Assembly: GCF_027943255.1 (NCBI RefSeq) | Contig: NW_026562179.1 | Coordinates: forward strand, 994,501 to 1,058,500 | Origin: Anastrepha obliqua | Taxonomy: Eukaryota > Arthropoda > Insecta > Diptera > Tephritidae | Reading direction: 5' to 3' | Length of the DNA stretch: 64,000 nucleotides | Part shown: piece after piece, positions 7,676 through 60,072 of the stretch | Position numbering within the stretch: the first letter of the stretch is position 1 | Layout of the letters: each line of letters begins with the position of its first letter | The notes under the pieces: generated by a model | Databases searched by the model: none | Told to the model about the DNA's origin: nothing | What the model saw: only the letters and a program-made list of their open reading frames with translations | Position numbers and translations under genes: made by a program

Positions 7676-8659
7676 TTATCTACTTAGTCCAAAGTAGCAC
7701 TTGTTGGCAAGAGAGATTCTACGTTGGATTTCCAGGCTGACATTGTTATCGGTGTTAATGATGGTTCCTAAATAAACGAAGTCTGGTACAACCTCGAAAC
7801 TATAACTGTCTACAGTGACGTGGGTGCAGATAAGCGAGTGCGCCGACTGTTTGTTTGATGACAGGAGGTACTGCGTTTTGTCCTCGTTCACCACCAGACC
7901 CATTCGCTTTGTCTCTTTACTCAGTTTGGAGAAGGCAGAACTAACAGCGCGAATCTTAAGACCGATGATATCGATATCATCGGCATACGCCAACAATTCG
8001 ACGCTCTTATAAAATATTGCGCTTGAGCGATTCAGTTCTGCGGCTTGTACAATCCTCTCCAACATCTGGTTAAAGAAGTCACACGACAGCGAGTCACCCT
8101 GTCTGAAACCTCGTGTGGTGTCAAATGGCTCGGAGAGATCCTCCCCAATTCTGACGGTGCTGCTGGTGTTGCGCAACGTGATCTTGCAAATACGTATTAG
8201 TTTTGTGGGGATACCAAATTTAGATATCCCGGCATACAGATAACTCCTTTTCGTACTGTCGAATGCAGCTTTGAAGTCGACGAAAATATGGTGTGTGTCG
8301 ATTCTCCTTTCGTGCGTCTTTTCCAAGATTTGGCGTATTGTAAATATTTGGTCGGTGGTAGACTTTCCAGGTCTAAAGCCACACTCATAAGGTCCAATCA
8401 GTTGGCTGAAGGTGGGCTTCAGCCTTTCACACAATACGCTCGCTAGAACCTTATAGGCGATATTTAGAAGACTAATCCCGCGGTAATTCGCACAGATTGT
8501 AGGATCATCCTTCTTATGGATTGTGCAGAGCACTCTTAAATTCCAATCGGTAGGGATGCTTTCATCCGACCATATTTTGCATAGAAGCTGATGCATGCAT
8601 CTTACCAGCTCCTCGCCGCCGTGTTTGAATAGCTCAGCCGGCAGACCGTCGGCGCCCAC
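7676..8659 (-). CDS. RTE reverse transcriptase domain (partial polyprotein)
   Basis: This 327-codon open stretch is the best-preserved RTE RT in the window. It starts in the fingers (DGLPAELFKHGGEELV), continues through NYRGISLLNIAYKV, the FVDFKAAFDS motif with the first catalytic aspartate, RQGDSLSC, and the catalytic LLAYADDIDIIG. It ends after YLGTIINTDN. A stop separates it from the C-terminal frame at 7301-7618, so the polyprotein is broken. The annotated start is simply the first in-frame start codon; the real ORF begins far upstream in the endonuclease. The product would copy RNA into DNA at a nicked target site. Confidence 0.85.
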   Translation of the reverse strand: MGADGLPAELFKHGGEELVRCMHQLLCKIWSDESIPTDWNLRVLCTIHKKDDPTICANYRGISLLNIAYKVLASVLCERLKPTFSQLIGPYECGFRPGKSTTDQIFTIRQILEKTHERRIDTHHIFVDFKAAFDSTKRSYLYAGISKFGIPTKLIRICKITLRNTSSTVRIGEDLSEPFDTTRGFRQGDSLSCDFFNQMLERIVQAAELNRSSAIFYKSVELLAYADDIDIIGLKIRAVSSAFSKLSKETKRMGLVVNEDKTQYLLSSNKQSAHSLICTHVTVDSYSFEVVPDFVYLGTIINTDNNVSLEIQRRISLANKCYFGLSR

Positions 8660-9370
8660 GGCTTTATTGTTCTTAAGCCGCTTTATCGCTATTCTCTCCT
8701 CGTTATGATGGGGTAGCGGAACGACAATTCCGTCGTCGTCGATTGGGGTATCGGGATCTTCATATTCTCTGTGACATGCGCAGCTGTCACTGTTTAACAG
8801 ATTCGAGAAGTGTTCCCTTCATAGTTTAAGAATGCTCTGGATGTCACTCACCAGACCGCTGTCTTTGTTCTTACTGGAAAACGCCCCGGTCTTAAATTCT
8901 TCTTTAAGCCGCCGAACTTCCTGGTAAAATTTTCGGGCGTTGTTCCTATTGGCCAGCATCTCAAGTTCCTCGCTCTCACGTATTTCGGCCCCTTATTTCT
9001 TCTTTCGGATAATACGTCTGTCTTCCTTTCTTAGCTCTCGGTAGCCCTCCCAAATGGCTCGCGTTGCGCCCGATCGTCGCGTGGCTGTTTAGGCGGCATC
9101 CTTTCTTTCTGCGGCAGCATGACATTCCTCGTCATACCAACTGTTTTTTCGGGCTCTCCGGAATCCGATTTCTTCTTCGGCCGCGGTACGTAAGGAACAA
9201 GAAATGTTGCTCCATTGCTCGTGCATGCCGGTTTGTTGGGCAGTGCTCTCTGAAAGCAGGAGTGAGAGTCGAGGGGCGAATCTTCTGGCTGTCTGTTGTG
9301 ATTGCAGCTTTCCGATGTTGAACATTCTTTGCGTAGGTAAATGTAGAGTAGAATGGGGTAAGATAGGTAT

Positions 9371-9798: not shown

Positions 9799-10688
9799 AT
9801 GGTGCGTAATTAAGTGCGAAAAACGCCGAAACGAAGTGAAGAGGACGTAAAAAGCGCAATCGTGGCAGTCCGAGATGGCGCTAGTGTTCGATCAGCCTCT
9901 AAACAATTTAAAATTCCGTTCGAAACATTACGTGCTCGCGTGATAGGAAAGTGCTCGTCATCAATAGAATTGCTGGATTAGACTTTTGTAAGAATAATAA
10001 TATTGAAGTATTAGCTCTACCTCCGCACACCAGCCATCGTTTGCAGCCTCTCGATAGAGCAGTATTTGGGCCGCTCAAAACTTATTTTGACCATTCCTGC
10101 AAGGCGTGGATGTTAAATCATTCCGGCATTCCTATTACCATCGACCGAATAGCTAAACTGGTAGCTGAACCCTTGTTGAAAGGTGCTTCCAGCATGAATA
10201 TCATCGCTGGATTCAGATCAACTGGCATTTGGCCATTTAATCGTGACATTTTTTCGGAAGATGATTTCACGCCAGCATTCGTAACTGATCGTCCGTACGA
10301 GGACGAACCAGATCAAGAGGCTGGTCCATCGAATGGCCATGAAGAGCCTGTTTTATCGAATGCCGATCAAGAGCCAGATCGATCGAAACTCGACCTATTA
10401 ATTCCAATTGAGGACATTCGACCGTTTCCTTAAGCTCCACTGCACAAACCATTAAATCGAGGCCGGAAGCGACGTAAAGCTGCACTTCTCACAGTAGAGG
10501 TGATGCTAGAGTCATTACGCGCTGAGCAAGCAGCTGCAGCTCAGAAGAAATCGGACGCGGAAGCAAAAAAACAATTTGCCACCGAAAGAAAAAAAGAAAG
10601 AGAGGCTGCAGAGAGGCAGAAGCTCATACAAAAACACCAAAAATTGACCAAAGAAGAGAAGAAAAATGAATTAAAGAAAAAATCCTAA
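9799..10688 (+). pseudogene. pogo/Tigger-like transposase, deleted
   Basis: From the ATG at 9799 the frame reads a helix-turn-helix of the pipsqueak type (EEDVKSAIVAV, SVRSASKQFKIPFETLR), with a stop at codon 5. At about 9945 the frame jumps to the C-terminal half of a DDE domain: DFCKNNNIEVLALPPHTSH, LQPLDRAVFGPLK and GFRSTGIWPFNRDIF. An in-frame TAA at 10431-10433 interrupts a lysine- and alanine-rich tail that ends at 10688. The first catalytic aspartates and their surroundings are lost with the deletion. No function remains. Confidence 0.85.
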
Positions 10689-17009: not shown

Positions 17010-17834
17010 TTATTTGCAGCAGGACTGTATCCAGTCTGTGCGGTTTAGGAACCTTATTAGGTTGTTGAAGTCTAAACCAGACAGTTGTTCGAGACTCTCG
17101 AACAGCGGTTTGCCCAGGGTTAACATTCTGTCCTTCCATAGGGTAGGGCATTCACAGAGGAAATGGAAGATTGTTTCTTTTTTCTCCGGTTGTTTACAAC
17201 TATGACAGTATGTGTTGTGAGGGATGCCCATTTTGGTGGCTTGTTCTCCGATAGACCAGAAGCCAGTTATGACTGCCGTAAGTCTACAGGTGTCCCGTCG
17301 TTTCATGTTTATTAATGTCGACGATTGCTTAAGGTTGTAGGTGGGCCACAACGTCCTGCTGATTTTGCATTTCGTTTGGTCTCTCCATCTACAATCTGCA
17401 ATTCGAAGGTATTTTAGGGAAATTGCATTCTTGACCGCACCTAGTGGAGTGAATACTGGTACTGCAAGAGCGCTATTCATGGCAGATCCCCCTCTTCCCA
17501 GTTCATCAGCTTTTTCGTTACATTCTATGTTCCGGTGTCCCGGGACCCAAATTAAGGTTACTCTATGGTTTTCACTCAAGGTGGTGAGGCTGTTCCTACT
17601 TTGCTCCACCACTTTAGAAGTTGTTATAGGCGCGTCCAGCGCCTGGATTGCGGCTTGGCTATCCGAAAGAATAGCTATATTGCCCTTAAACGAGAAATCT
17701 GCGATTAGTAACCTACAGGCTTCCCCAATTGCTAGTACTTCCGCTTGGAAGACGCTGCTGGTGTTAGGGAGACGCACAAATTTTTCAATTTCAAGTCTAT
17801 GAGAATATATACCAGCTCCAACACCACAATCCAT
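17010..17834 (-). pseudogene. LOA-type copy 1, RNase H and C-terminal CCHC
   Basis: The 274-codon open stretch is ribonuclease H followed by a zinc-like motif. The real domain begins just upstream with YTDGRK. Inside the frame E32 (VFQAE), D58 (ILSDSQ), H100 (WVPGH) and D110 (NEKAD) fit the RNase H active-site pattern. The C-terminal part has CHSC (about 210-213), then HFLCECP (about 224-230). The frame runs to 17010 with LNRTDWIQS near its end. It is well conserved with 35204-35780 in copy 2. Confidence 0.8.
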
Positions 17835-18153
17835 TTTACGGCCATCTGTATAGACTGTGGTATCGAAGTTGTTTAGAGATAATCCCTTATTCCATTCTTC
17901 CTTAGATGGAATAGTGTGGCAAAATTCCTATTGAACGTTATCATCAGGACGATGTAGTCAGTCCTCACCGAGGTTAACTGAGTTTGTCGGAATAATAGAC
18001 TAGCGTGACCATAAGTTTTTCCTTTCCAGCGACCCGCTTCATTTAACCTAAATGCACTCATGGTTGCCGTCTTCTTTATACGTAGGTCTATTGGAATAAC
18101 GTGTGTCAGTGCATTGAGAGCCTCTCTAGGACATGATCTGATTGCACCGACCG

Positions 18154-19490
18154 TTATTGCACAGGCTGATCTTTGTATTCTGCCGAGTAATTTGGTATTG
18201 TAGTCTCTCCATAGAGTTTTCCACCAAAAACTACCGAACCATTCGATAAAATGGGTCGTGTAACCGCCTTATGCAGCCATAATGTATGCTTAGGTTGAAG
18301 ACCCCATCTTCTTCTAAGCATACGTTTGCAGGCATATAAAGCAATTCCTGCTTTCCTTACCCGTTCTTCGACGTTTAACTTCCAGCTATGTTTGGAGTCC
18401 AAAATTACCCCTAAGTACTTTGCACTGGTTGATAGTGACAGAGTTTGTCCGTTGATATTTGGTAAGGTAAAAGTTGGTACCTTGTATCTGGTGGTAAAAA
18501 GCATAAGTTCTGTTTTACGCGGGTTTAAACTTAGCCCACATCCTTTGGCTCAAGAGTTAAGCTCGCCTAACGCCCTTTGGATGATCCCACTGATCGTATT
18601 TGGACACAGTCCTGACACCATTAACACCACATCATCAGCGTACGCCACCACTTTTACCCCACCTCCGTCAAGTTTTGTTAAGATTTTGCTGATCACACAT
18701 AGCCAAAGAAGTGGAGATAATACTCCCCCTTGTGGAGTGCCCCGTGGACCTTCTTGGTTATGTTGATATTACCCAAATTAGCTTTGATGATCCTGGTTTC
18801 TAGCACGGAGATGACCCAGTTACTAACGCAACTGTCCACCTCCAGGTCTATCAACGCCCGTTGGATGGCATCTGTGCTAACATTGTTAAAGGCGCCTTCG
18901 ATATCCAAGAATGCCGCCATGGTATAATGTTTGCTCTCTAGAGAGCCCTCTATAGTTCGGATTACCTCGTGAAGCGCTGTCTCCGTAGATTTGCCTTTAA
19001 GGTATGCGTGTTGTGCAGTTGATATACCAGAGCTCTCCATAGAGCTTCTGAGGTGCGTATCCAAAAGTCTTTCAAAAGTTTTTAACAGGAAAGACGAAAG
19101 ACTGATTGGCCTAAAGTCCTTCGCTGATTCATGTCCTCTTCTACCTACTTTTGGTATGAAGACGACCTTGACTAGTTTCCAGCTATCTGGAATATGGCCT
19201 AAATCTAAACACGCTTTAAAAATTTCCTCTAGCCATGGTAGGATACAGTCCAAGGTTTCCTTTAACATCTTTGGAATGATCCCATCTGGCCCCAGAGATT
19301 TAAAGGGCGAGAAAGGTTTGATTGCCCATACAACTGTTTCTTTGGTAATAATTTCATTTGCAAGATGCTGTGGATTGTATTGACTCCGCCTAATGTTTCC
19401 CCTCTCACTTTCGTAAGCGCTGCATCCCGGAAAATGCGTGTTTAGCAGAAGTTTTAGCGATTCTTCTGCCGTAGCAATCCAAGTTCCCAA
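18154..19490 (-). pseudogene. LOA-type copy 1, RT domain
   Basis: Frame 19490-18693 has the fingers and palm: SLGPDGIIPKML, WKLVKVVFIPKVGRRGHE, FRPISLSSFLLKTFERLLD, GKSTETALHEVI and AAFLDIEGAFNNVS with the first catalytic aspartate. After a frame change near 18730, RGTPQGGVLSPLLW and VVAYADDVVLM (about 18645-18615) complete the active site. The frame at 18504-18154 carries TSAKYLGVILDSKHSWK. All RT motifs are present, in different frames. Confidence 0.8.
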
Positions 19491-20371
19491 GAAGCCATTG
19501 AATGGTCTTTGGAAAGAACACGGCTGAGCCTAGCAGAATCTCTGGTGGATTCGATTGAGGAACAAAATTCCCTCCAAGGTTTTCCGTGAGAGTGATTTGA
19601 GGGACAGGAGTCTCTCCTATTCTCTTATTTACTGCATTTTTGAACCTCTTCCAGTTGGTTCTTAAAGGATTTATATACGGTAGGGGTGGATCTACCTTAA
19701 GATCCAAGTCGTAAAGGATCCAACTATGATCCGGAAAGGAGCTTTTATTGGATACCCTCCAATTATCTACCCTTACTGAGCTATTTTCAGACAGTAAAGT
19801 AACATCAATCACTTCCTCCCATCCTCTGAAGTACTCCGTACAAGGAAAGGTGAAAGTGGGAGTGTTAACCTTGTTACATACCGATAAGTTAGTATTAATA
19901 ATAAAATGTATATACTCACCTCGGTCGTTTGTCTCAGAGCTTCACCACAACGCATGCCTCGCGTTGGCATCACATCCGAGCAGCAGGTTCTTATTTCTGG
20001 GTTCACGCACAAGCCAACGAGCCTCCTCGGGTGGTGCTGGCCGATCATGTGCATTGTAGATGGAAGCCAATATGATGCCGACACCGTCAGCGGCTTCTAC
20101 CTCCACAGCCGTCACATCCTGTGAACAATATGATGGGATTAAAAATATGTTCAAATGTTTCTTAGCTACAATACAAGGTCTGGGGTTACCTTCAGTCCGT
20201 TTGTAGAAAAGGTTGTTGTTGTTCCCAGTAAACCCCTTCACCTCGGTGCTCCGCACCAAGGGCTCCTGGATTAAAGCGATGTGAACGTCCTCCTCCGCCA
20301 GGAGAAGGGTTAGGTTGTCCGTGGCAGTCCGCGAGTGCTGCAGGTTTATTTGTACAACCTAGAGACCCATG
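19405..20371 (-). pseudogene. LOA-type copy 1, ORF2 endonuclease region
   Basis: The ORF2 start is the ATG at about 20371. After two codons there is a TAG where copy 2 has a lysine. It reads VVQINLQHSRTATDNLTLLL and ALIQEP, the N-terminal signature of an apurinic-like endonuclease. NLLLGCDANARHALWG follows at about 19960-19920. The frame then shifts; frame 19405-19812 carries VIDVTLLSENS and SFPDHSWI, the last catalytic Asp-His region. The enzyme would nick the target DNA, but this copy cannot make it intact. Confidence 0.75.
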
Positions 20372-26994: not shown

Positions 26995-27137
26995 TGACTC
27001 TTATTTTTTTTGTATGAATGCGCATAAATTCGTGCTTTGTTATGCGCGTTGGCAAGATGCATATATGGCGTAGTGTATAAAATGCATGCGACGGTCGTGG
27101 GGAAAAAAACTATGAGCAGATTAATACGTGCGTGTTA

Positions 27138-28361
27138 ATGTGTGGAAAGCGAGAGTTGAAAAAGAGCAAGAAACAAGCCGATATACAAAAAAAAACGAGT
27201 GGTGCAAGCGTGTACGAATGTACATATTGTGCGGGAAAAATGCCGAAAATAGTGAATTTAAGAGTGGAACAACTTAAAACGCTGCTGCGTGAACGAGAAA
27301 AACCTACGACTGGTACTAAGGCAGAACTAGTCCAGCGGCTATGTGATATTGAAAACAGTGACGAAATAAATATTGACGAAAGGTGTACAATGCAAGAGCA
27401 GATTAATGAGTTGCGAGAAATGATGCAAGGCATCACTACTTTGCTGCAACAACAAAACCGTGAACAACAACCAAGTAGTGTAAATAACGCACACATAATA
27501 GAACAAATGGCCGCGAGTGTAGAAAATACAACTACCCCGGTATCAATGGTAGATTTTTCAAGTGCAAGGTGCTCGGTGAAATAGATTGCTGAAACTTTAC
27601 CCACCTTTGATCCAACGAATGAACTTTCTTTGCCGGTCGAAAAATTTGTAGAACGTGTTAATCAAGCACATAGTGCCTATCAGTGGAACGAAAGAAGTTT
27701 AATGCTAGCAGTTTTTAGCAAGTTGAAAGGTGTTGCTAAACTATGGTTAGATGCTCCACCAGAGTGTTACTCGAATTGGGCAATTTTCGCGGAAAGGTTA
27801 ATAGAAGAATTCGGTACTAAGCCAAACGAGGCAGAGATACATTACAAAATGAACAGTTCGGTGCGTAAATTTGATGAAAAAGTCGTGGAATATTGTTTTC
27901 GTATGAGTGCCATTGGGCAGCGATATAATTTGAGTGAATCAGCGATTATAAAATATACGCGGAACGGATTACGAAATCGGGAACTGCAAACGGCAATTGC
28001 TCCAATGCGATTTGATTCGATGAGACACTTGCGCGAAACGCTTGACGAGTATGATAAAAATCGTAATAGTACTCCAGGTTTGAAGTTTGAACAAAACAAA
28101 AATAGAAACACGAATAATGACGGGAATAAAGGTAGCGCTGAGAATAAAAGTAAGATAAAGTGTTATAATTGTTTCGAAGAAGGTCATATAGCGACCAGAT
28201 GTTCTAAGCCACTACGAAAAGCGCAGTATGGTGATGGTCAGAAAGTTGACCCGAAGGTTGAGGCTGTGGAGCGTAATAAGAGAAATGCTACAATGACAAA
28301 CCGTAAAGTCGAGTGCGATGAGGAATTTTGTATTAAACTGGTGTTAAAAATCAAGCATTAA
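27138..28361 (+). pseudogene. gypsy gag
   Basis: The frame begins with ATG at 27138 (another at 27240) and runs to 28361 with a single TAG at 27582-27584. The N-terminal part has a SAP-like DNA-binding motif (LRVEQLKTLLREREKPTTG at about 27255-27311). The capsid-like region follows the stop (LMLAVFSKLKGVAKLWLD and the FRMSAIGQRYNL block). A zinc knuckle CYNCFEEGHIATRC of the CX2CX4HX4C type lies at about 28161-28202. The protein would form the particle and package RNA. The stop makes it formally broken unless read through. Confidence 0.85.
28337..28361 (+). promoter_or_regulatory. gag-pol overlap, candidate -1 frameshift site
   Basis: The pol frame opens at 28337 and lies in the -1 frame relative to gag, which ends at 28361. 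Within the 25-base overlap, G TTA AAA at 28343-28349 is positioned in the gag frame and is close to known -1 slippery heptamers of the GTTAAAC type. A structural stimulator was not identified. Confidence 0.5.
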
Positions 28362-28369
28362 AAGCATTC

Positions 28370-31300
28370 GTGGACACAGGAAGTGAATGCAGCATGATAC
28401 GGAAATCATGTGCTGATAAATTCGAAATTGAAAAGGAGCCTTGCGTGTTAAAAATAAAGGGCATATGTGGAGGTGCGCGGTATGCAAGTGAGTTGATGAG
28501 AACTGAAATAAAAATTGACAGTGTAAAAGTAAATGTAATACTATATATAGTAGATGACGAGTTGTTAACGTCAGATGTATTGCTTGGAAAAGAGATTTTC
28601 AATCGGAATATTGTCGCGCACATAAACAGTGGACAATTGAAATTCGAATATCTACCGATCGCGGAAAATCGAGAAACGACGGTATCTGAACGCAAAGTTA
28701 TAAATGAAAATCAAATAATATGTGGAGAACTTGAAAGTGCGCAGACGGGAAAGCTAATCAGACTGTTGAACGAGTACAATGATATATTTGCAAATAATAT
28801 CAGTGAGATAGGACAGACAAATGCATTATCCATGAAAATTAAGTTAGATACTAATGTACCTATTGCACAAAACCCATACCGTATACCAGAGCCGAAGAAA
28901 GTGTTGGTTCAACAGATGATTAGAGAGTTATTAGTTAACGATATAATAGAAACGTCAGAATCTGAATATGCGAGTCCAATTGTACTCGTGAAAAAGAAAA
29001 ATGGAGAATCGAGATTGTGCGTAGATTATCGTAAGGTGAATCAACATACCCGAAAAGAAATTTATCCAATGCCGCATATTGAAGAACAGCTTCATGAAGC
29101 AAAACGTTATAAATATTTCACAGTATTAGATATGAATAGTGGGTATTATCAGATGCCAATACATCCAGATAGTCGTAGATATACTGCGTTCGTAACCACA
29201 GAGGGGTTGTATCAGTTTAAACGAATGCCGTTTGGGCTAAAGAATGCCCCAGTAGTCTTCCAACGCTTGATGGCAAAGGTAAAAGAACGAACACAGAATG
29301 GAGATATGGTAAACTACATGGATGACATTATGATAGGGGGTTCAACTGTCGATGAAATGTTGGCCAAATTGAGGCGTGTACTTGATGCATTACGAGAGTT
29401 TAATTTGACTTTGAATTTGAAGAAATGCGAGTTTGCAAAAGAAACAATTGAATTTTTGGGCCATACATTAACTCCAAACGGAATTAGTCCAGGTACAGCA
29501 AAAACAATAGCTATTACAAATTTTTCAATTCCTAAGAACGTAACTGAAATACGACAATTTCTGGGGTTAGGTGGATACTTTAGAAAGTTTGTGGCAGGGT
29601 ATGCCATTAAATCAGAGCCACTGCGACGTTTACTTTGTAAGGAACAAAATTTTCGATGGGGCGAAGAACAGCAAAGGGCTTTCGATGAGCTGAGGTTGGC
29701 ACTGGTGTCCAAGCCGGTGATGACGTCATATAGAATTGAAGCCAAGCATGAGATCCATACCGATGCAAGTTCCATTGGATTAGCTGGCGTGTTATTGCAA
29801 CTTGAAGAAGACGATTGGAAGCCGGTAGTATGTTTTAGTCGATCCACGAGCGAAAATGAGAAAAAGTATCATAGTTACGAGTTGGAGACTCTTGCAGTAG
29901 TGGAAACACTAGAGCGTTTTAAATATTATGTCTACGGGAAAGAGGTTACTGTAATAACCGACTTCAATGCAATCAAAACAGCAATGGCCAAGAAAGAGCT
30001 CATCCCGCGCATAGCGCGCTGGTGGCTCAAAGTGCAAGAGTACGACATAAAAATAGAGCATCGTTCCGATAAGCGGATGGAATATGTCGACGCGTTGAGT
30101 AGGTCCCCAGTAGAAGCATCGCGTGAAGTGGACGAAGCGTCCTTGTGTGTCTTGAAAGCAGGTATAGACGAGCAGGACTGGTTATTTAGTATGCAGATAC
30201 AGGATGTTGATGTCAAGCAAATAGTCGATAAAGTGAAGTCAAAAGATATTAAAACGTTAGATGAATATATACTTGAGAATGGTCGATTGTACAAGAAATA
30301 TGAAGGTGCGAAGTTGTGGGTTGTACCAAAGGCACTTCGATCAAAAGTTCTGTATGATTGTCATAATAATGCAGGTCACTTAGGTGTTGACAAAACTATC
30401 CAGCGACTACTGAGTTATTTATGGTTTCCAAGGATGAGAAATTATGTCAAATCGTACATCAAGTCGTGTGTAGAATGCGCCTATAACAAAGATCGAGGAG
30501 GGCGAAGAGAAGGAGAATACCATTTCAATGATAAAGAACCAATTCTGTTCAAGACAGTGCACTTAGATCATTTAGGTCCATTCCCTAAAAGTAAACAGAG
30601 AAACGAGCATCTGCTGGTCTTAGTTGATGCCTTTACAAAATTCACAGTCATACGAGCGGACAAGAGTACCAAGACCAAACCTGTACTAGAAATAATAAAC
30701 GAAGTTAGTAGTTACGTCGGTATGCCAGCACGAATTGTGACAGACAGAGGTACCGCTTTCACTTCGAAAGAATTCACGAAATATTGCAACGACAACTGTA
30801 TAAAACACATCAAGAATGCTGTGCGTACTCCCAGAGCAAACGGACACGCAGAACGAGCAAACAGAACAATTTTGTCAATGCTGTTGCCAATTACCACCGA
30901 AGATAGATGTTGGGACGAAAGGTTACGAGAAATACAGTGGGCAATAAATTCAATGAAAAACAAAACTACTACGAAGACACCTCAAGAGCTACTGTTTTGT
31001 TACGCCCCCCGAGATGTCCTGCAAAACAAAATATTATTAGCAATACAAGACGAACACTGTGCAGTTAACGATACTGATTTGGAAGAGGTCCGACGTACGG
31101 CAGCAGTCAAAATCAACGAGGCAAGACAAACAGCCAAACTCAAATATGACAATCAGCACAATAAACCAACAATATACAATGTAGACGATTTGGTGCTCGT
31201 CGACAATGAACCAATGAGTACCGGGCATTCACGAAAATTAGAGCAACATTACAAAGGACCATTCATAATCACGGCATCTCTTGGTAATGATCGGTATGTG

Positions 31301-31501
31301 GTTGAGGACTTGCCAGGTTCTCGCAGGAAGCAGAGACATTATTCATCGGTGTACGCATCTGATAAGCTGAAATTGTGGTGTAACCTACCACCATGCGACG
31401 ATATCGAAACAGACGAAGATGAGACTACAGGAGAATCTACGGAACCTGAGCGGGGTCGCACCAGTATGTCAGGAGAGGCCGAGTGTAAGAAAACTCAGTA
31501 G
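28370..31501 (+). CDS. gypsy pol polyprotein (protease, RT, RNase H, integrase)
   Basis: The stretch of 1043 codons is uninterrupted. The protease site DTGSECS is at residues 2-8. RT has VDYRKVN and YMDDIMIGG (about 315). RNase H begins near IHTDASS (about 461) and includes TDFNAIK. The integrase has HNNAGH with CVECA (about 664-703), then catalytic aspartates near LDHLG (about 731) and TDRGTAF (about 790) and a glutamate in HAERANR (about 826), which fits DD35E. A GPF-type motif (YKGPFIITA) lies near 962. The first codon listed is GTG; synthesis is expected by frameshift from gag. The stop TAG and the last codons are encoded by the 3' LTR. No defect is visible. Confidence 0.92.
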   Translation: MDTGSECSMIRKSCADKFEIEKEPCVLKIKGICGGARYASELMRTEIKIDSVKVNVILYIVDDELLTSDVLLGKEIFNRNIVAHINSGQLKFEYLPIAENRETTVSERKVINENQIICGELESAQTGKLIRLLNEYNDIFANNISEIGQTNALSMKIKLDTNVPIAQNPYRIPEPKKVLVQQMIRELLVNDIIETSESEYASPIVLVKKKNGESRLCVDYRKVNQHTRKEIYPMPHIEEQLHEAKRYKYFTVLDMNSGYYQMPIHPDSRRYTAFVTTEGLYQFKRMPFGLKNAPVVFQRLMAKVKERTQNGDMVNYMDDIMIGGSTVDEMLAKLRRVLDALREFNLTLNLKKCEFAKETIEFLGHTLTPNGISPGTAKTIAITNFSIPKNVTEIRQFLGLGGYFRKFVAGYAIKSEPLRRLLCKEQNFRWGEEQQRAFDELRLALVSKPVMTSYRIEAKHEIHTDASSIGLAGVLLQLEEDDWKPVVCFSRSTSENEKKYHSYELETLAVVETLERFKYYVYGKEVTVITDFNAIKTAMAKKELIPRIARWWLKVQEYDIKIEHRSDKRMEYVDALSRSPVEASREVDEASLCVLKAGIDEQDWLFSMQIQDVDVKQIVDKVKSKDIKTLDEYILENGRLYKKYEGAKLWVVPKALRSKVLYDCHNNAGHLGVDKTIQRLLSYLWFPRMRNYVKSYIKSCVECAYNKDRGGRREGEYHFNDKEPILFKTVHLDHLGPFPKSKQRNEHLLVLVDAFTKFTVIRADKSTKTKPVLEIINEVSSYVGMPARIVTDRGTAFTSKEFTKYCNDNCIKHIKNAVRTPRANGHAERANRTILSMLLPITTEDRCWDERLREIQWAINSMKNKTTTKTPQELLFCYAPRDVLQNKILLAIQDEHCAVNDTDLEEVRRTAAVKINEARQTAKLKYDNQHNKPTIYNVDDLVLVDNEPMSTGHSRKLEQHYKGPFIITASLGNDRYVVEDLPGSRRKQRHYSSVYASDKLKLWCNLPPCDDIETDEDETTGESTEPERGRTSMSGEAECKKTQ

Positions 31502-43104: not shown

Positions 43105-44404
43105 CAGGGTGTCTGATGAATTTTGCTACATTAAGAAACTCAAATAACTTTTTTTTAGTGTATGGAATTCATTTATTTTTTTTTCAAGTTGAAGGTCATT
43201 AAATTTTATTAAATGCAGCTTAACTAGTTTTAAAAATAATTGAATTTAAATGCCCCCCATGCTCGTTGACACAAGTGAGTAAAAAGTTGTTCATTGCTGC
43301 TTTGAGAGTTGCGACAGGAATAGCCGCAATTGTTGCCCGAATGGATTGTTTTAGTTCATCCAAATTTGTTGGCTTTGTTTTATAAACTTCTTGTTTACAT
43401 AAACCCCACAAGAAAAAGTCAGGTGCAGTAAGGTCAGGCGACCTGGGGGGCCAACGAAATTCGGAGTTTCTTGAAATCAGTTTATTGGGAAATTTTCGTC
43501 GCAACTCTGTCATAACAGTCTGGGCTATGTGAGACGTTGCCCCATCTTGTTGAAACCACACAGAGTTGAAAGGAATTCTCTTTCGGCGTAGTTCTGGATA
43601 GAAAAATTCTTTCAGCATTTTCAAATAACGGTCTCCAGTAACCGTAACGGTGTGACCATTTTCTTCAAAAAAATAAGGCCCGACAATACAGCGTGAAGAA
43701 ACCGCACACCACACTGTCACGCAGAGGATGCAATTCCGTCTCGTGGAGTATCTGTGGGTTAGAAGTACTCCATATTCGACAATTTTGTTTGTTCACATTG
43801 CCGTTTAAATCGAAATGGGCCTCATCAGACATGAAAAGGCAGTTTAACATGTTTTGGTCTTCTTCCACCATTTGCAGGATCTTCTGGCAAAATTCCAAGC
43901 GAATCGGCAAGTCTGCTGCATTCAGTTTGTTAACCATTTAATTTTGTAGGGAAATAAGTCTAAATTTTTGTGCATTATTGTTTGCAAAGACTGTCGGCTG
44001 ACACCAAGTTGAGCAGATAAGCTTCTTGTTGAAACCCTTGGATTGCTTTGTGTAGCTGCAGCTACAGCAGCGATCGTTTCCTCCGTCCGAACTGGTGGGT
44101 TTCGATGATAAGGCCTTCTTGCGACTGTTCCTTGCTCAGCAAAATTATTCAACAGTCTCATTATGGTCCATCTGCTCGGGGGATCGCCGCCAAACATCCG
44201 CCTGTACTCTCTCTGTACCAAAACTACGGACTCCAGTGCGTGATAGCGGCGGACTATCCAAATTCTTGTTTGCGTGTCCCAGTTATCCATTTTAATAAAT
44301 TTTAAAGATCAATCTGCAAATTAAAACAAAAATGGAACAGATAACTTAAAAAGAAAAAAAGTTATTCAATTTTTTTTTGGTAGCGGCTTTCATCAGCCAC
44401 CCTG
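43105..44404 (-). mobile_element. rosa-type mariner (DD41D), full length
   Basis: The element is 1300 bp with inverted ends CAGGGTGTCTGATGAA and CAGGGTGGCTGATGAA and TA on both sides (43103-43104 and 44405-44406). The transposase gene is on the minus strand (44290-43220) with two frameshifts. Forty-one residues separate the second and third catalytic aspartates, the DD41D spacing of the rosa group, first described from tephritids. It is inserted in the jockey element. Confidence 0.9.
43220..44290 (-). pseudogene. rosa-type mariner transposase, two frameshifts
   Basis: Starting at the ATG at 44290, the frame gives a helix-turn-helix (IVRRYHALESVVLVQREYRR and PPSRWTIMRLL) and a second one (VSTRSLSAQLGVSRQSL). 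Near 43930 the frame changes into RLEFCQKILQMVEEDQ and FMSDEAHFDLNG, the first catalytic aspartate. Near 43715 it changes again into MTVWCAVSSRC, VWFQQDGATSH (second aspartate) and WPPRSPDLTAPDFFLWG (third). It ends at 43220. All catalytic residues are present; only the two indels break it. Confidence 0.88.
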
Positions 44405-46199: not shown

Positions 46200-47110
46200 C
46201 GTTTTTACTATAACGCATTTACTCTCTCTCGTTGGAATCAGAATGTTTTATCGCGAGAACGAGTTAGAACATTATGTGCCACTAATTCTCGTATTTTAAT
46301 AACTTTGAAGGAGTATAATAGAATCCTGAATTCCTCTGAACATGATTTGTATGTACCAAATAAGAATTCGCGTCTGGTGAATTTGGGAGCCATTGTGTGG
46401 CCGTTATGAAGTTCGGAACGTTGTTTTTTAGCCATTCTTGGTTCAGTCGAGCCTTGTGAGACGGTGCCGAGTCCTGTTGAAACGCCCATGGTCTGCCATT
46501 TACCTTGACGCCAGGCTGGATGAAAACGATTGGAGAGCGCCCATCTGCGGTTAAAGGGGCCCAAACCATTATCAGTGGCGGGTGCTGTCTCCTGGTGTTA
46601 AATCGATGACTCAAATTCTCGTATGAACGATCGGTAAAATAAACCCTATCGTTTTGGGAGATTACGAATTGCACAATGTGAAAAATTTTGTCGTCAGAAA
46701 ACACAATTTTCGGAAATTGAGCTCTTTCAGCTAAGCGAGTTGCTTTCCTTCGCTCTCTCAAGTCTGACTTGTTTTTGCTTTGGTGTGAGATCATACGCCT
46801 TTTGGATCTTGTAATGTTTGACTTTAAGATCATTTTTCAGTGTGAGATTCGCACTTCGTCGGGGATTTCACTCAAGTCGCTTCTTCAACCATTTCACTTG
46901 ATGTTGCAGTCTTTTGATGACCACCTCCATGACGTTTCGCGACGTTACCAGTATCATTTTAACGAGTAATGGTGCGATAAACAAAATCTTTATTTACTTT
47001 AAGGTGCTCGAACTCACGATTACTCGCTGGCTGTGATTTTCCAACCAAATATAATGCAATTGCACTTTTACGTTTGAAATCCATTACTGATTTTCTTTTT
47101 TCGCGTTTAG
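46200..47110 (-). pseudogene. mariner relic of DD37D (maT-like) type
   Basis: The minus strand begins MDFKRKSAIALYLVGKSQPA near 47085 and continues in the frames up to 46833-46282: FPKIVFSDDKIF (first aspartate), NTRRQHPPLIMVWAPLTADG and WAFQQDSAPSHKARLNQEWL (second aspartate). The third site (SPDANS) has lost its terminal aspartate; the expected position gives 37 residues between the second and third catalytic sites. Internal deletion and frameshifts are present. Terminal repeats were not identified. Confidence 0.75.
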
Positions 47111-48018: not shown

Positions 48019-48026
48019 CAGCTGTA

Positions 48027-48400
48027 AGTCTGTAAATACTTGTATTGTATATGGTAGGGTAGGGTACTGAGATATGGTAGGGAGTGCGCAACTATTAAAT
48101 TTCAAGGTAAAAGGTCACAAAAATCGTTTTTTTTTTGCGCTTATTTTGTAAATATCTCATTTCCCATGGGTTTTTTGCTATTTGTATTTATTATCAATAT
48201 TGTAGAGTAATTTTTTATACGGTGAACCGTGTTCGAGATAGAGGGCGGAGAGCGCGCGGTCACTGGATGACTTCAGGTCAATCGGTGCCTCCGGTCGAAA
48301 ACGCGCCATATATAGTTGATGAACTATCGATAAATCAATGATTATACGAATTTGTCAATTTTTATTAACTATTCTTATATTTTATGATGTTTTCCTTATC
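48027..48400 (+). repeat. left inverted repeat of the 48-50 kb element
   Basis: It matches the inverse of 49770-50144 with scattered differences. The best-conserved blocks are at 48089-48110, 48155-48230 and 48235-48360. A divergent patch with GGTAGGGT direct repeats is at 48050-48085. Confidence 0.85.
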
Positions 48401-48637
48401 TATCCACTTTTCATCAGTATTAATTTACTTAACAACACTTACCTGCCCATGTAATGCAGAATAGTTAATGAAAATCTAGGAATTATATTTGAATTTTATC
48501 CTAATTAATATTAACAACTTCTTACTTGATGAAAAAATAAATAAATTATGAATTCATCTTTTTATTAAAAAATATTATTCAATACATTTATTTATATAAA
48601 AAAATGGAATAAAGGGTACAAAAACTACACTTTATAA

Positions 48638-49485
48638 TCATATAATCATCTGCTTCCTCTTCATCTTCGTCTTTCGGCTGTTGGTAAATTTCAAACTGGT
48701 CTTCATTATCGTCTTCAACGACATTTGTCTCAAGTCTTGCATGATTTCGGGGTCAAAGGTTCCATCTTCGTTAAGGTCGCTCTGATATGGTAGAGCATTG
48801 AGACAAGCTTGTCCATTACATTGGCCACAAGCTAAAGAGCATTGCAAGCCCGCTTTCCTGCATCCTCCACTTAATGCGTGCAGAAATAAAATATTTGTTC
48901 TGCAAAGAGGATAATTATCAAAACTTTTAGTCGAGCATATCTCCGTTTTTATATTTCCTTTTCCAACTTTTTTAAAGAAAACTTCTTGTTCGTAAGACAG
49001 TGTACGCCCAATTAAAATGACAAGTAAATCAATATCTTGTTCTATTATAACTGAAGTTTTTTCAGACTTTGATTCTTCAATTGCAGTTTCAACAATAAGA
49101 ACATCCGCATCATCTGTGGCTTGTTTAGAAGTAATATTTGCAGCTTATAATTTTTCAATTAACACATTAATGAGCTTAATTTTGTTATATCGATTTGATA
49201 AGATTTTTTCTTGAGTAACTGGAACAACCATTGTTTCATCGAAACAGACTTCATACGTTCTTCTCTGCTGCTCCATAGCTTTTACGTTCTTACGGTAGTC
49301 TGAATATCCGTCAAATACAACAATTATTTTGGAACTGTAATGCCTTTGTAAATAATGAGAGGTATTTATCAAAAATAATAGACTTTTTACATAGAAAACA
49401 CAAATTAGCCATAGTTCTTGAAATTGTACGTACGTAGTTACTAAGATACGATTCAAACTGAAGTAAAGAGAAGACGGTCGTAACT
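48638..49485 (-). pseudogene. XPG/FEN-like nuclease plus CXC-type cysteine cluster, degenerate
   Basis: On the minus strand one frame runs from about 49485 to 48638 with a single stop near 49145. It reads IIVVFDGYSDYRKNVKAMEQ followed by QRR, then VTQEKILSNRYNKIKLINVL, ATDDADVLIVETAIE, SVIIEQDIDLLVILIG, FFKKVGKGNIKTEI and TNILFLHAL. Then comes a cysteine cluster, GLQCSLACGQCNGQACLN, near 48855-48800. VFDG, a basic/RR helix, an acidic DDAD and an E/Q-DxDLLV motif in this order resemble the N and I regions of XPG/FEN-type nucleases. The cysteine spacing resembles tesmin/TSO1 CXC repeats. I recall uncharacterised animal proteins combining these blocks but no established name. The segment between LFLHAL and the cysteines is shortened. 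Confidence 0.65.
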
Positions 49486-49769
49486 ATACAATACATGTAA
49501 ACATGTGCCTCTACTGGCTACAAATAGAAAGGTCCGTGGTGTATAATAGGGGCCCGTTTAATTCCCAAGCATACTTTTTGACGTAGTGGAAGGATTTTAA
49601 AATTTACAGATTTTAAAGAAGATGCACTTAATACTTTTCTATTTAAAATGTCATTAGTGTATAAAAGTGTAGTTATATGTATTATGATTTAAGTTTTTCC
49701 CTAAATAATTTTTTAATTTTAGGAAACGGTTATCAGTATTATCGAATAGATATAAATAGATTTAATGCA

Positions 49770-50144
49770 TAAAGAAAATGATAAAATATAATATGATAGT
49801 TAGTAAAAATTGACAAATATTTATAGTTATTGATTTATCGATAGTTCATCAATTATATATGGCACGTTTTCGACCGGAGGCACCTGTTGACCTGAAGTGG
49901 TCCTGTGACCGCGCGCTCTCCGCCCTCTATCTCGAAAACGGTTCACCGTATAAAAAATTACTCTACAATAGTGATAATAAATGCAAATAGCAAAAAACCC
50001 ATAGGAAATGAGATGTTTACAAAATAAGCGCAGAAAACCGATTTTTGTGACCTTTAACCTTGAAATTTAATAGTTGCGTACAACCTACCATATGTAGGTT
50101 TTGAGACAACTTTTAAAGTGTCAATATACAAGTACTTACAGACT
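49770..50144 (-). repeat. right inverted repeat of the 48-50 kb element
   Basis: Inverse of 48027-48400. It contains GTGACCGCGCGCTCTCCGCC at about 49906-49925 and ends AAGTACTTACAGACT at 50144. Confidence 0.85.
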
Positions 50145-50149
50145 CAGCT

Positions 50150-59130: not shown

Positions 59131-60072
59131 AAAGCGTTTTTCAGTAAGAGCGCTTCAACTTTTTTTTTGAATAAAACACAAACGGTTTGACTTTTTTAAC
59201 CAATTTTTTTTTTTATCGAGTTTGAACATATACATTTAAGTATCAAATTCGATTTCTTTTGCATGACCACCGCGTGCACGTTTTACCAAGTCCAATCGTT
59301 GAACCCAATTTTCGACCACTCTTTTGCATAAATCGGCCGAAATTCCAGCAATTTCGCGTTCAATGTTGGCTCTGAGCTCACAAATCGGTGCCGGCTTGTT
59401 ACTGAAGACCAATGACTTCACATAACGCCAAAGAAAATAGTCTAGAGGCGTCAAATCACACGAGCGCGGCGGCCATTCGACCGGTCCATTTCTGGAAATA
59501 ATGCGCTCATCGAACTTACTCTTCAACAAATCAATTGTAGCGTGTGCTGTGTGGCTTGTGGCCCCGTCTTGTTGAAACCACATGTCGTCTAAGTCCATAC
59601 CATTCAATTGCGGCCAAAAATAATCGTTTATCATGTCGCGGTATCGATTTCCATTCACAGTAACGTGGCGATCGTTCTCGTCAACGAAAAAATATGGGCC
59701 AATTACGCCGCCGGCATGTAAACCGCACCAAACAGTGATTTTTTCGGGATGCAACGGTGCCTCATGAATCACGTGTGGATTGCTTTCTGCCCAGTAACGC
59801 ATATTTTACTTGTTGACAAAGCCATTGAGCCAAAAGTGAGCTTCATCACTGAAGATGATTTTTTGGAAAATCTGCTCGTAAAGTAGCAGCAACAGAACGA
59901 TTATTTTCATAAAAAATTTGCACGATTTGCAATCTTTGCTCAAGTGTGTAGCGTTCCATGATGAAATGTATACTAATGAAGTTTACAAATGGCAAGCGAA
60001 AAATAAAAAATATTGCGTCGTTCGCCCTCCCTATCGGAAAAAAGTTGAAGCGCACCTATTGAAAAACGCTAT
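59131..60072 (-). mobile_element. DD41D mariner, internally deleted, inside the DD34D mariner
   Basis: The inverted ends match over about 34 bases (AGCGTTTTTCA, then GCGCTTCAACTTTTTT) at 59132-59168 and 60039-60070. The right flank is TA; the left target TA appears as CA. On the minus strand the gene starts MERYTLEQRLQIVQIFYENN (59959), is deleted after SVAATLR, and continues with FSDEAHFWLNGFVNK (first aspartate). Frame 59802-59236 has ITVWCGLHAGGVIGPYFF, MWFQQDGATSH (second) and PPRSCDLTPLDYFLW (third), again with 41 residues between the last two. Confidence 0.85.
59236..59802 (-). pseudogene. DD41D mariner transposase, catalytic half
   Basis: The 188-codon frame covers the second and third catalytic aspartates and the C-terminus (ELRANIEREIAGISADLCKR). 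It is well preserved, with no internal stop. The N-terminal half upstream is deleted or frameshifted, so the gene is broken overall. A TAA near 59800 separates it from the first-aspartate region. Confidence 0.85.

What the first reader, a model, noticed from the sequence alone, without database searches (positions are those of the whole stretch)
48027..50144. Candidate new type of DNA transposon with XPG-like nuclease and CXC motifs
A 2.1 kb unit has about 375 bp inverted repeats at both ends and a single degenerate minus-strand gene in the middle. The gene shows VFDG, a basic helix with RR, DDAD and QDIDLLV in the order expected of XPG/FEN-type nucleases, followed by a cysteine cluster (C-x5-C-x3-C-x2-C-x5-C from the GC at 48870) resembling tesmin/TSO1 CXC. 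None of the classical DDE or tyrosine/serine recombinase motifs is visible. Uncharacterised animal proteins with these blocks exist to my recollection; their linkage to terminal inverted repeats here suggests that family is itself a transposon, perhaps using a structure-specific nuclease.
Basis: partly seen in the sequence, partly recalled or inferred. Interest (0 to 1): 0.9.

Follow-up and report, generated by a model that had tools for sequence, protein, structure and literature searches.

The report
Broken Academ-type DNA transposon copy
This is a shortened, dead copy of a jumping gene whose complete relatives appear to carry both a cut-and-paste transposase core and a DNA-repair-type flap nuclease, most likely the already named Academ superfamily, so it is probably not a new kind of mobile element.

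The parts
48020..48399 (+). left terminal inverted repeat arm (including the AGCT that may be target duplication)
   Evidence: about 380 bp, 332 identities, 37 mismatches, 23 gap positions to the other arm
49769..50149 (-). right terminal inverted repeat arm
48020..48023 (.). AGCT, candidate left copy of a 4-bp target site duplication
   Evidence: one copy only, and AGCT is its own reverse complement, so it cannot be told from the inverted repeat
50146..50149 (.). AGCT, candidate right copy of a 4-bp target site duplication
   Evidence: same caveat
49380..49412 (-). first 11 codons (MANLCFLCKKS) of the transposon protein
   Evidence: 9 of 11 identical to P0057 aa 1-11 (E 1.3 on its own; the junction as a whole is what carries weight)
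49362..49379 (-). codons 1077-1082 (IIFDKY), fused directly to codon 11: junction of the large internal deletion (about 1065 codons)
   Evidence: 15 of 17 identities across the junction; best place in each of five shuffled windows 6-7
48866..49357 (-). remnant of the FEN/XPG-type nuclease domain (relative's aa 1084-1253), with a 6-codon gap, an in-frame stop at 49145-49147 and a frame change just upstream of 49357
   Evidence: 84% identity to P0057
48731..48865 (-). second part of the CXC-like cysteine cluster and acidic tail (relative's aa 1410 to about 1454), fused to aa 1253 by a second deletion of about 156 codons
48675..48734 (-). end of the acidic C-terminal tail in another frame (relative's aa 1454-1473)

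Best explanation
A dead, non-autonomous copy, about 2.1 kb long, of a cut-and-paste DNA transposon that was about 5.8 kb when complete. Complete relatives encode one protein of about 1480 aa: N-terminal cysteine/histidine clusters, an RNase H-like DDE transposase core with a helical insertion, a FEN1/EXO1/XPG-type nuclease and a CXC-like cysteine cluster. Most likely it belongs to the nuclease-bearing AcademX lineage of the Academ superfamily. Proposed mechanism: the DDE core cuts at the inverted repeats and joins the ends to a target with a short stagger (3-4 bp), while the flap nuclease trims or opens branched intermediates; copies such as this one could be moved only by protein from a complete copy. 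Shown: repeats, gene remnant, the two deletions relative to P0057, invariant nuclease residues in aligned relatives, predicted nuclease fold. Inferred: DDE chemistry, role of the nuclease, trans-mobilisation, Academ name, complete length.
Against: No Academ reference sequence could be compared. The rows shown by the structure searches were nearly all FEN-type, so the DDE fold itself was not confirmed. Pfam finds no known transposase domain; only DUF6589 in some members. Only one DNA copy is at hand, so the target duplication is not established. A search for helicase-bearing relatives found none. P0177, a relative outside the 69, seems by eye to have lost some nuclease residues while keeping D84, D250, E415 and E492, so the nuclease may be dispensable in some.
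Confidence: 0.8

Rival explanations
1. A DNA transposon lineage with DDE core, FEN-type nuclease and CXC cluster that is distinct from Academ and unnamed.
For: No paper text that I saw gives the domain map of Academ in full; Pfam leaves the proteins unannotated apart from DUF6589 in some; no helicase-bearing relative was found.
Against: Transposase plus nuclease, length and a possible 4-bp duplication all fit AcademX as described in passages.
Confidence: 0.13
2. One reading: a transposon that moves by the XPG-like nuclease alone, without DDE transposase.
For: In this copy only nuclease and cysteine-cluster motifs are left; all seven nuclease acidic residues are invariant in 69 of 69 aligned relatives; no DDE fold match was shown.
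Against: Relatives with a complete N-terminal half have conserved D, D, E residues in an RNase H-like predicted order; the window copy shows the junction where that part was lost.
Confidence: 0.04
3. A host gene fragment that happens to lie between unrelated inverted repeats.
For: Some relatives are annotated as genes in insect genomes.
Against: The first codons and the end of the gene both lie inside the repeats, with two internal deletions, as in non-autonomous transposons; 32 of 46 relatives of 1450-1520 aa sit on contigs of 4.5-6 kb, mostly of unnamed source, as expected of a repeated unit.
Confidence: 0.03

Closest known systems
AcademX lineage of the Academ superfamily (DNA transposons)
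   Same: Terminal inverted repeats; in relatives one large protein with a probable DDE core plus a nuclease; estimated size near the 5.6 kb mean; a possible 4-bp target duplication.
   Different: This copy has lost all of the DDE part and part of the nuclease and cysteine cluster; sequence match to a named Academ consensus not tested.
AcademH (Academ with helicase)
   Same: Same superfamily if the Academ assignment holds.
   Different: Carries a helicase and makes 9-10 bp duplications according to PMC10045372 (passage); PMC3627910 speaks of a RecQ helicase in Academ (passage). No helicase domain is listed for the relatives shown.
FEN1/EXO1/XPG (Rad2) nucleases
   Same: Predicted fold and all seven acidic positions in aligned relatives.
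   Different: Fused to a transposase-like half and a CXC-like cluster; only 13-16% identity to EXO1 in the structural alignments.
Tesmin/TSO1 CXC proteins
   Same: Cysteine order C-x-C ... C-x-N resembles CXC (recalled pattern); UniRef names several relatives so.
   Different: Single cluster, no Pfam CXC match.

Membership tests
Academ superfamily, AcademX lineage | DDD/E transposase domain (PMC9587614) | tested here: inconclusive
   Relatives: conserved D84, D250, E415 (or E492) and RNase H-like order of predicted strands and helices; fold not confirmed by search because FEN-type matches filled the rows shown. The window copy has lost this region.
Academ superfamily, AcademX lineage | encodes a nuclease (PMC10045372) | tested here: met
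   FEN1/EXO1/XPG fold in models of two relatives; seven acidic residues in 69 of 69. Rows were found with a nuclease query, so presence of the domain is by choice; its invariance is not. The passage does not say which kind of nuclease; that it is XPG-like is recalled.
Academ superfamily, AcademX lineage | target site duplication of 3 or 4 bp (PMC10045372) | tested here: inconclusive
   AGCT at both ends, but one copy only and the word is palindromic.
Academ superfamily, AcademX lineage | terminal inverted repeats around the gene | tested here: met
   for this copy only
Academ superfamily, AcademX lineage | sequence similarity to named Academ consensus proteins | not testable with these tools
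   No repeat library is on hand; the AcademH paper is not held.
Academ superfamily, AcademX lineage | DDE core shared with helicase-bearing AcademH | tested here: inconclusive
   looked among candidates longer than about 1627 aa (2994 scored) and found 2 relatives, neither with a Pfam domain listed.
FEN1/EXO1/XPG nuclease family | seven metal-binding acidic residues (positions recalled from FEN1) | tested here: met
   Aligned relatives 69 of 69. The window copy itself lacks two of the seven (the IDGG and GCD positions). P0177, outside the 69, also seems to have lost some (read by eye).
FEN1/EXO1/XPG nuclease family | fold | tested here: met
Tesmin/TSO1 CXC domain | match to a curated CXC profile | tested here: inconclusive
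   No CXC profile reported for 7 (two of them window pieces), 6 and 28 proteins scanned; spacing is CXC-like by eye.

The most novel reading that the evidence does not exclude
The complete relatives are two-engine transposons: a DDE core and a fully intact FEN/EXO1-type flap nuclease in one protein, both required for moving, in a lineage that may be separate from named Academ. If so, a repair-type nuclease is a working part of the transposition reaction rather than a passenger.
Probability: 0.15. Interest if true: 0.55.

Novelty: new member of a known kind. Interest (0 to 1): 0.22.

Why it matters
Mainly as annotation: it suggests that deposited 'uncharacterized' or 'Tesmin/TSO1-like CXC' proteins of insects and spiders that belong to this family are transposon proteins and should be masked. 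The open question it touches, why some DNA transposons carry a complete flap nuclease, is testable with complete copies, not with this one.

Tried and rejected
Rejected: DDE-less new transposon (longer relatives have the missing half); host gene between chance repeats (first codons and the end of the gene lie inside the repeats). Led nowhere: the window's own genome (genome search, 13 tries of the same request, never answered), so copy number and target duplications are untested; relatives in viral contigs (36 pattern stretches, none confirmed) and genome contigs (31 and 72 stretches, none confirmed), phages and plasmids: no match; exact repeat pattern in viral contigs: none; helicase-bearing relatives: none. 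Pfam on the two window ORF pieces gave no match above its cut-off. PDB sequence search with the 168-aa ORF gave nothing. In one search the best row was 4m0m, an uncharacterized protein (E 0.00027, profile positions 145-292, outside both the DDE-like and nuclease parts); I did not follow it up. Among the 50 rows shown of 357 and the 50 there is no RNase H-fold transposase; the tool says this is no evidence of absence.

Rows left out: alignment A1 holds 69 of the 120 listed relatives (57 of 1300 aa or more, the shortest 852 aa; one of 1300 aa or more, P0160, was left out by oversight). In one search only the 7996 candidates sharing most words were scored and 120 of 154 hits were listed.

Literature: I saw passages only (find results) of PMC10294476, PMC10045372, PMC9004415, PMC10799480, PMC4455052, PMC6327564, PMC8290104, PMC12210899, PMC9587614 and PMC3627910; other papers only as search listings. 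The Kojima 2020 AcademH paper, Yuan and Wessler 2011 and Muszewska 2017 are not held; what I know of them is recalled or second-hand. That the nuclease of AcademX is XPG-like is recalled, not read.

Full report
What is there. The stretch 48020-50149 has inverted arms of about 380 bp (332 identities, 37 mismatches, 23 gap positions; score 498 against at most 34 in 200 single-base shuffles). Near the outer ends lie CTGTAAATACTTGTA and its partner with one difference (0.13 matches expected by chance, 2 found), and outermost AGCT on both sides, which could be a 4-bp target duplication or the last part of the repeats, since AGCT is its own reverse complement. Between the arms lies a broken minus-strand gene.

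What the gene was. A protein search with the 168-aa open frame gave 55 relatives, the named ones from wasps, ants, spiders, moths, butterflies and beetles. Of the 120, 46 are 1450-1520 aa long, and 32 of these 46 lie on contigs of 4.5-6 kb. One relative, P0057 (1483 aa, unnamed source), aligns to the window at 84% identity over aa 1084-1253, 77% over aa 1395-1454, and to the tail up to aa 1473. It also aligns at the start: window 49412-49362 reads MANLCFLCKKSIIFDKY, which is aa 1-11 of P0057 joined to aa 1077-1082, 15 of 17 identical, against 6-7 for the best place in each of five shuffled windows. A second junction joins aa 1253 to aa 1410. So about 1065 and 156 codons are missing, and adding them gives a complete length near 5.8 kb. 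The remaining frame has a stop at 49145-49147, a 6-codon gap and two frame changes. I conclude that this copy makes no working protein.

The part this copy lost. Upstream of the nuclease, D84 is D in 65 of 65 rows with a residue there, D250 in 68 of 68, E415 is E in 65 of 69 (two D, one Y, one G) and E492 in 69 of 69 (numbering of P0065). The model places D84 in a strand (78-88), D250 directly after a later strand (245-249), and both E candidates in or at the end of helices after strand 273-277. This is the order of an RNase H-like DDE transposase core (recalled). Pfam reports only DUF6589 here, in P0119 (E 4.2e-8) and, just below its cut-off, P0149, and in 4 of 28 rows of another sample.

What it is. 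Academ is one of the 20 DDD/E superfamilies in Repbase (PMC9587614, passage). [quoted passage not shown] Academ was reported in all arthropods surveyed by PMC6327564 (passage). Transposase-like core, nuclease, size (mean 5565 bp for Academ in a bivalve library, PMC10294476, passage) and a possible 4-bp duplication all point to AcademX. Missing is a direct comparison with an Academ sequence. A search for helicase-bearing relatives among candidates longer than about 1627 aa found only two relatives, neither with a Pfam domain listed.

How it probably works. By analogy with other DDE elements, the core cuts at the inverted repeats and inserts with a short stagger. The nuclease may remove flaps or open branched ends during excision or repair; its complete active site in 69 of 69 aligned relatives argues for use, not decay. 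These steps are inference. The present copy could at most have been moved by protein from a complete copy.

Verdict. A degenerate, internally deleted member of a probably known superfamily, in a stretch with several other transposon remains. Low interest as a finding; the dual-enzyme design of complete relatives is the part worth a specialist's attention.

Noticed in passing
27081-31501 (+): Retrotransposon of Gypsy type by domain order, with a 1054-aa pol frame without stops: protease, RT, RNase H, integrase. Flanking LTRs not checked.
   Followed up: partly
9912-10433 (+): Remnant of a pogo/Tigger-like transposase (Pfam DDE_1, E 1.2e-7).
   Followed up: partly
43220-43792, 46282-46836 and 59236-59805 (-): Three fragments that look mariner-like by eye; Pfam gave no match at 0.001.
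   Followed up: partly
7676-8818 (-) and 17010-19529 (-): Probably non-LTR retrotransposon fragments with reverse transcriptase and RNase H domains; further such frames elsewhere by eye.
   Followed up: partly
P0177 (Cydia fagiglandana): A 1784-aa annotated moth gene related to this family that keeps D84, D250, E415 and E492 but by eye seems to have lost some nuclease acidic residues; a decaying copy or a candidate for a host-adopted gene.
   Followed up: partly
P0176 (Phaedon cochleariae): A 1942-aa predicted protein joining the transposase-like core to an extra N-terminal part and, by eye, lacking most of the nuclease; perhaps a gene-prediction fusion.
   Followed up: no
P0119, P0149 and 4 of 28 rows of A4: Weak matches to Pfam DUF6589 over the transposase-like core; if real, that unknown family would be a transposase relative.
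   Followed up: no
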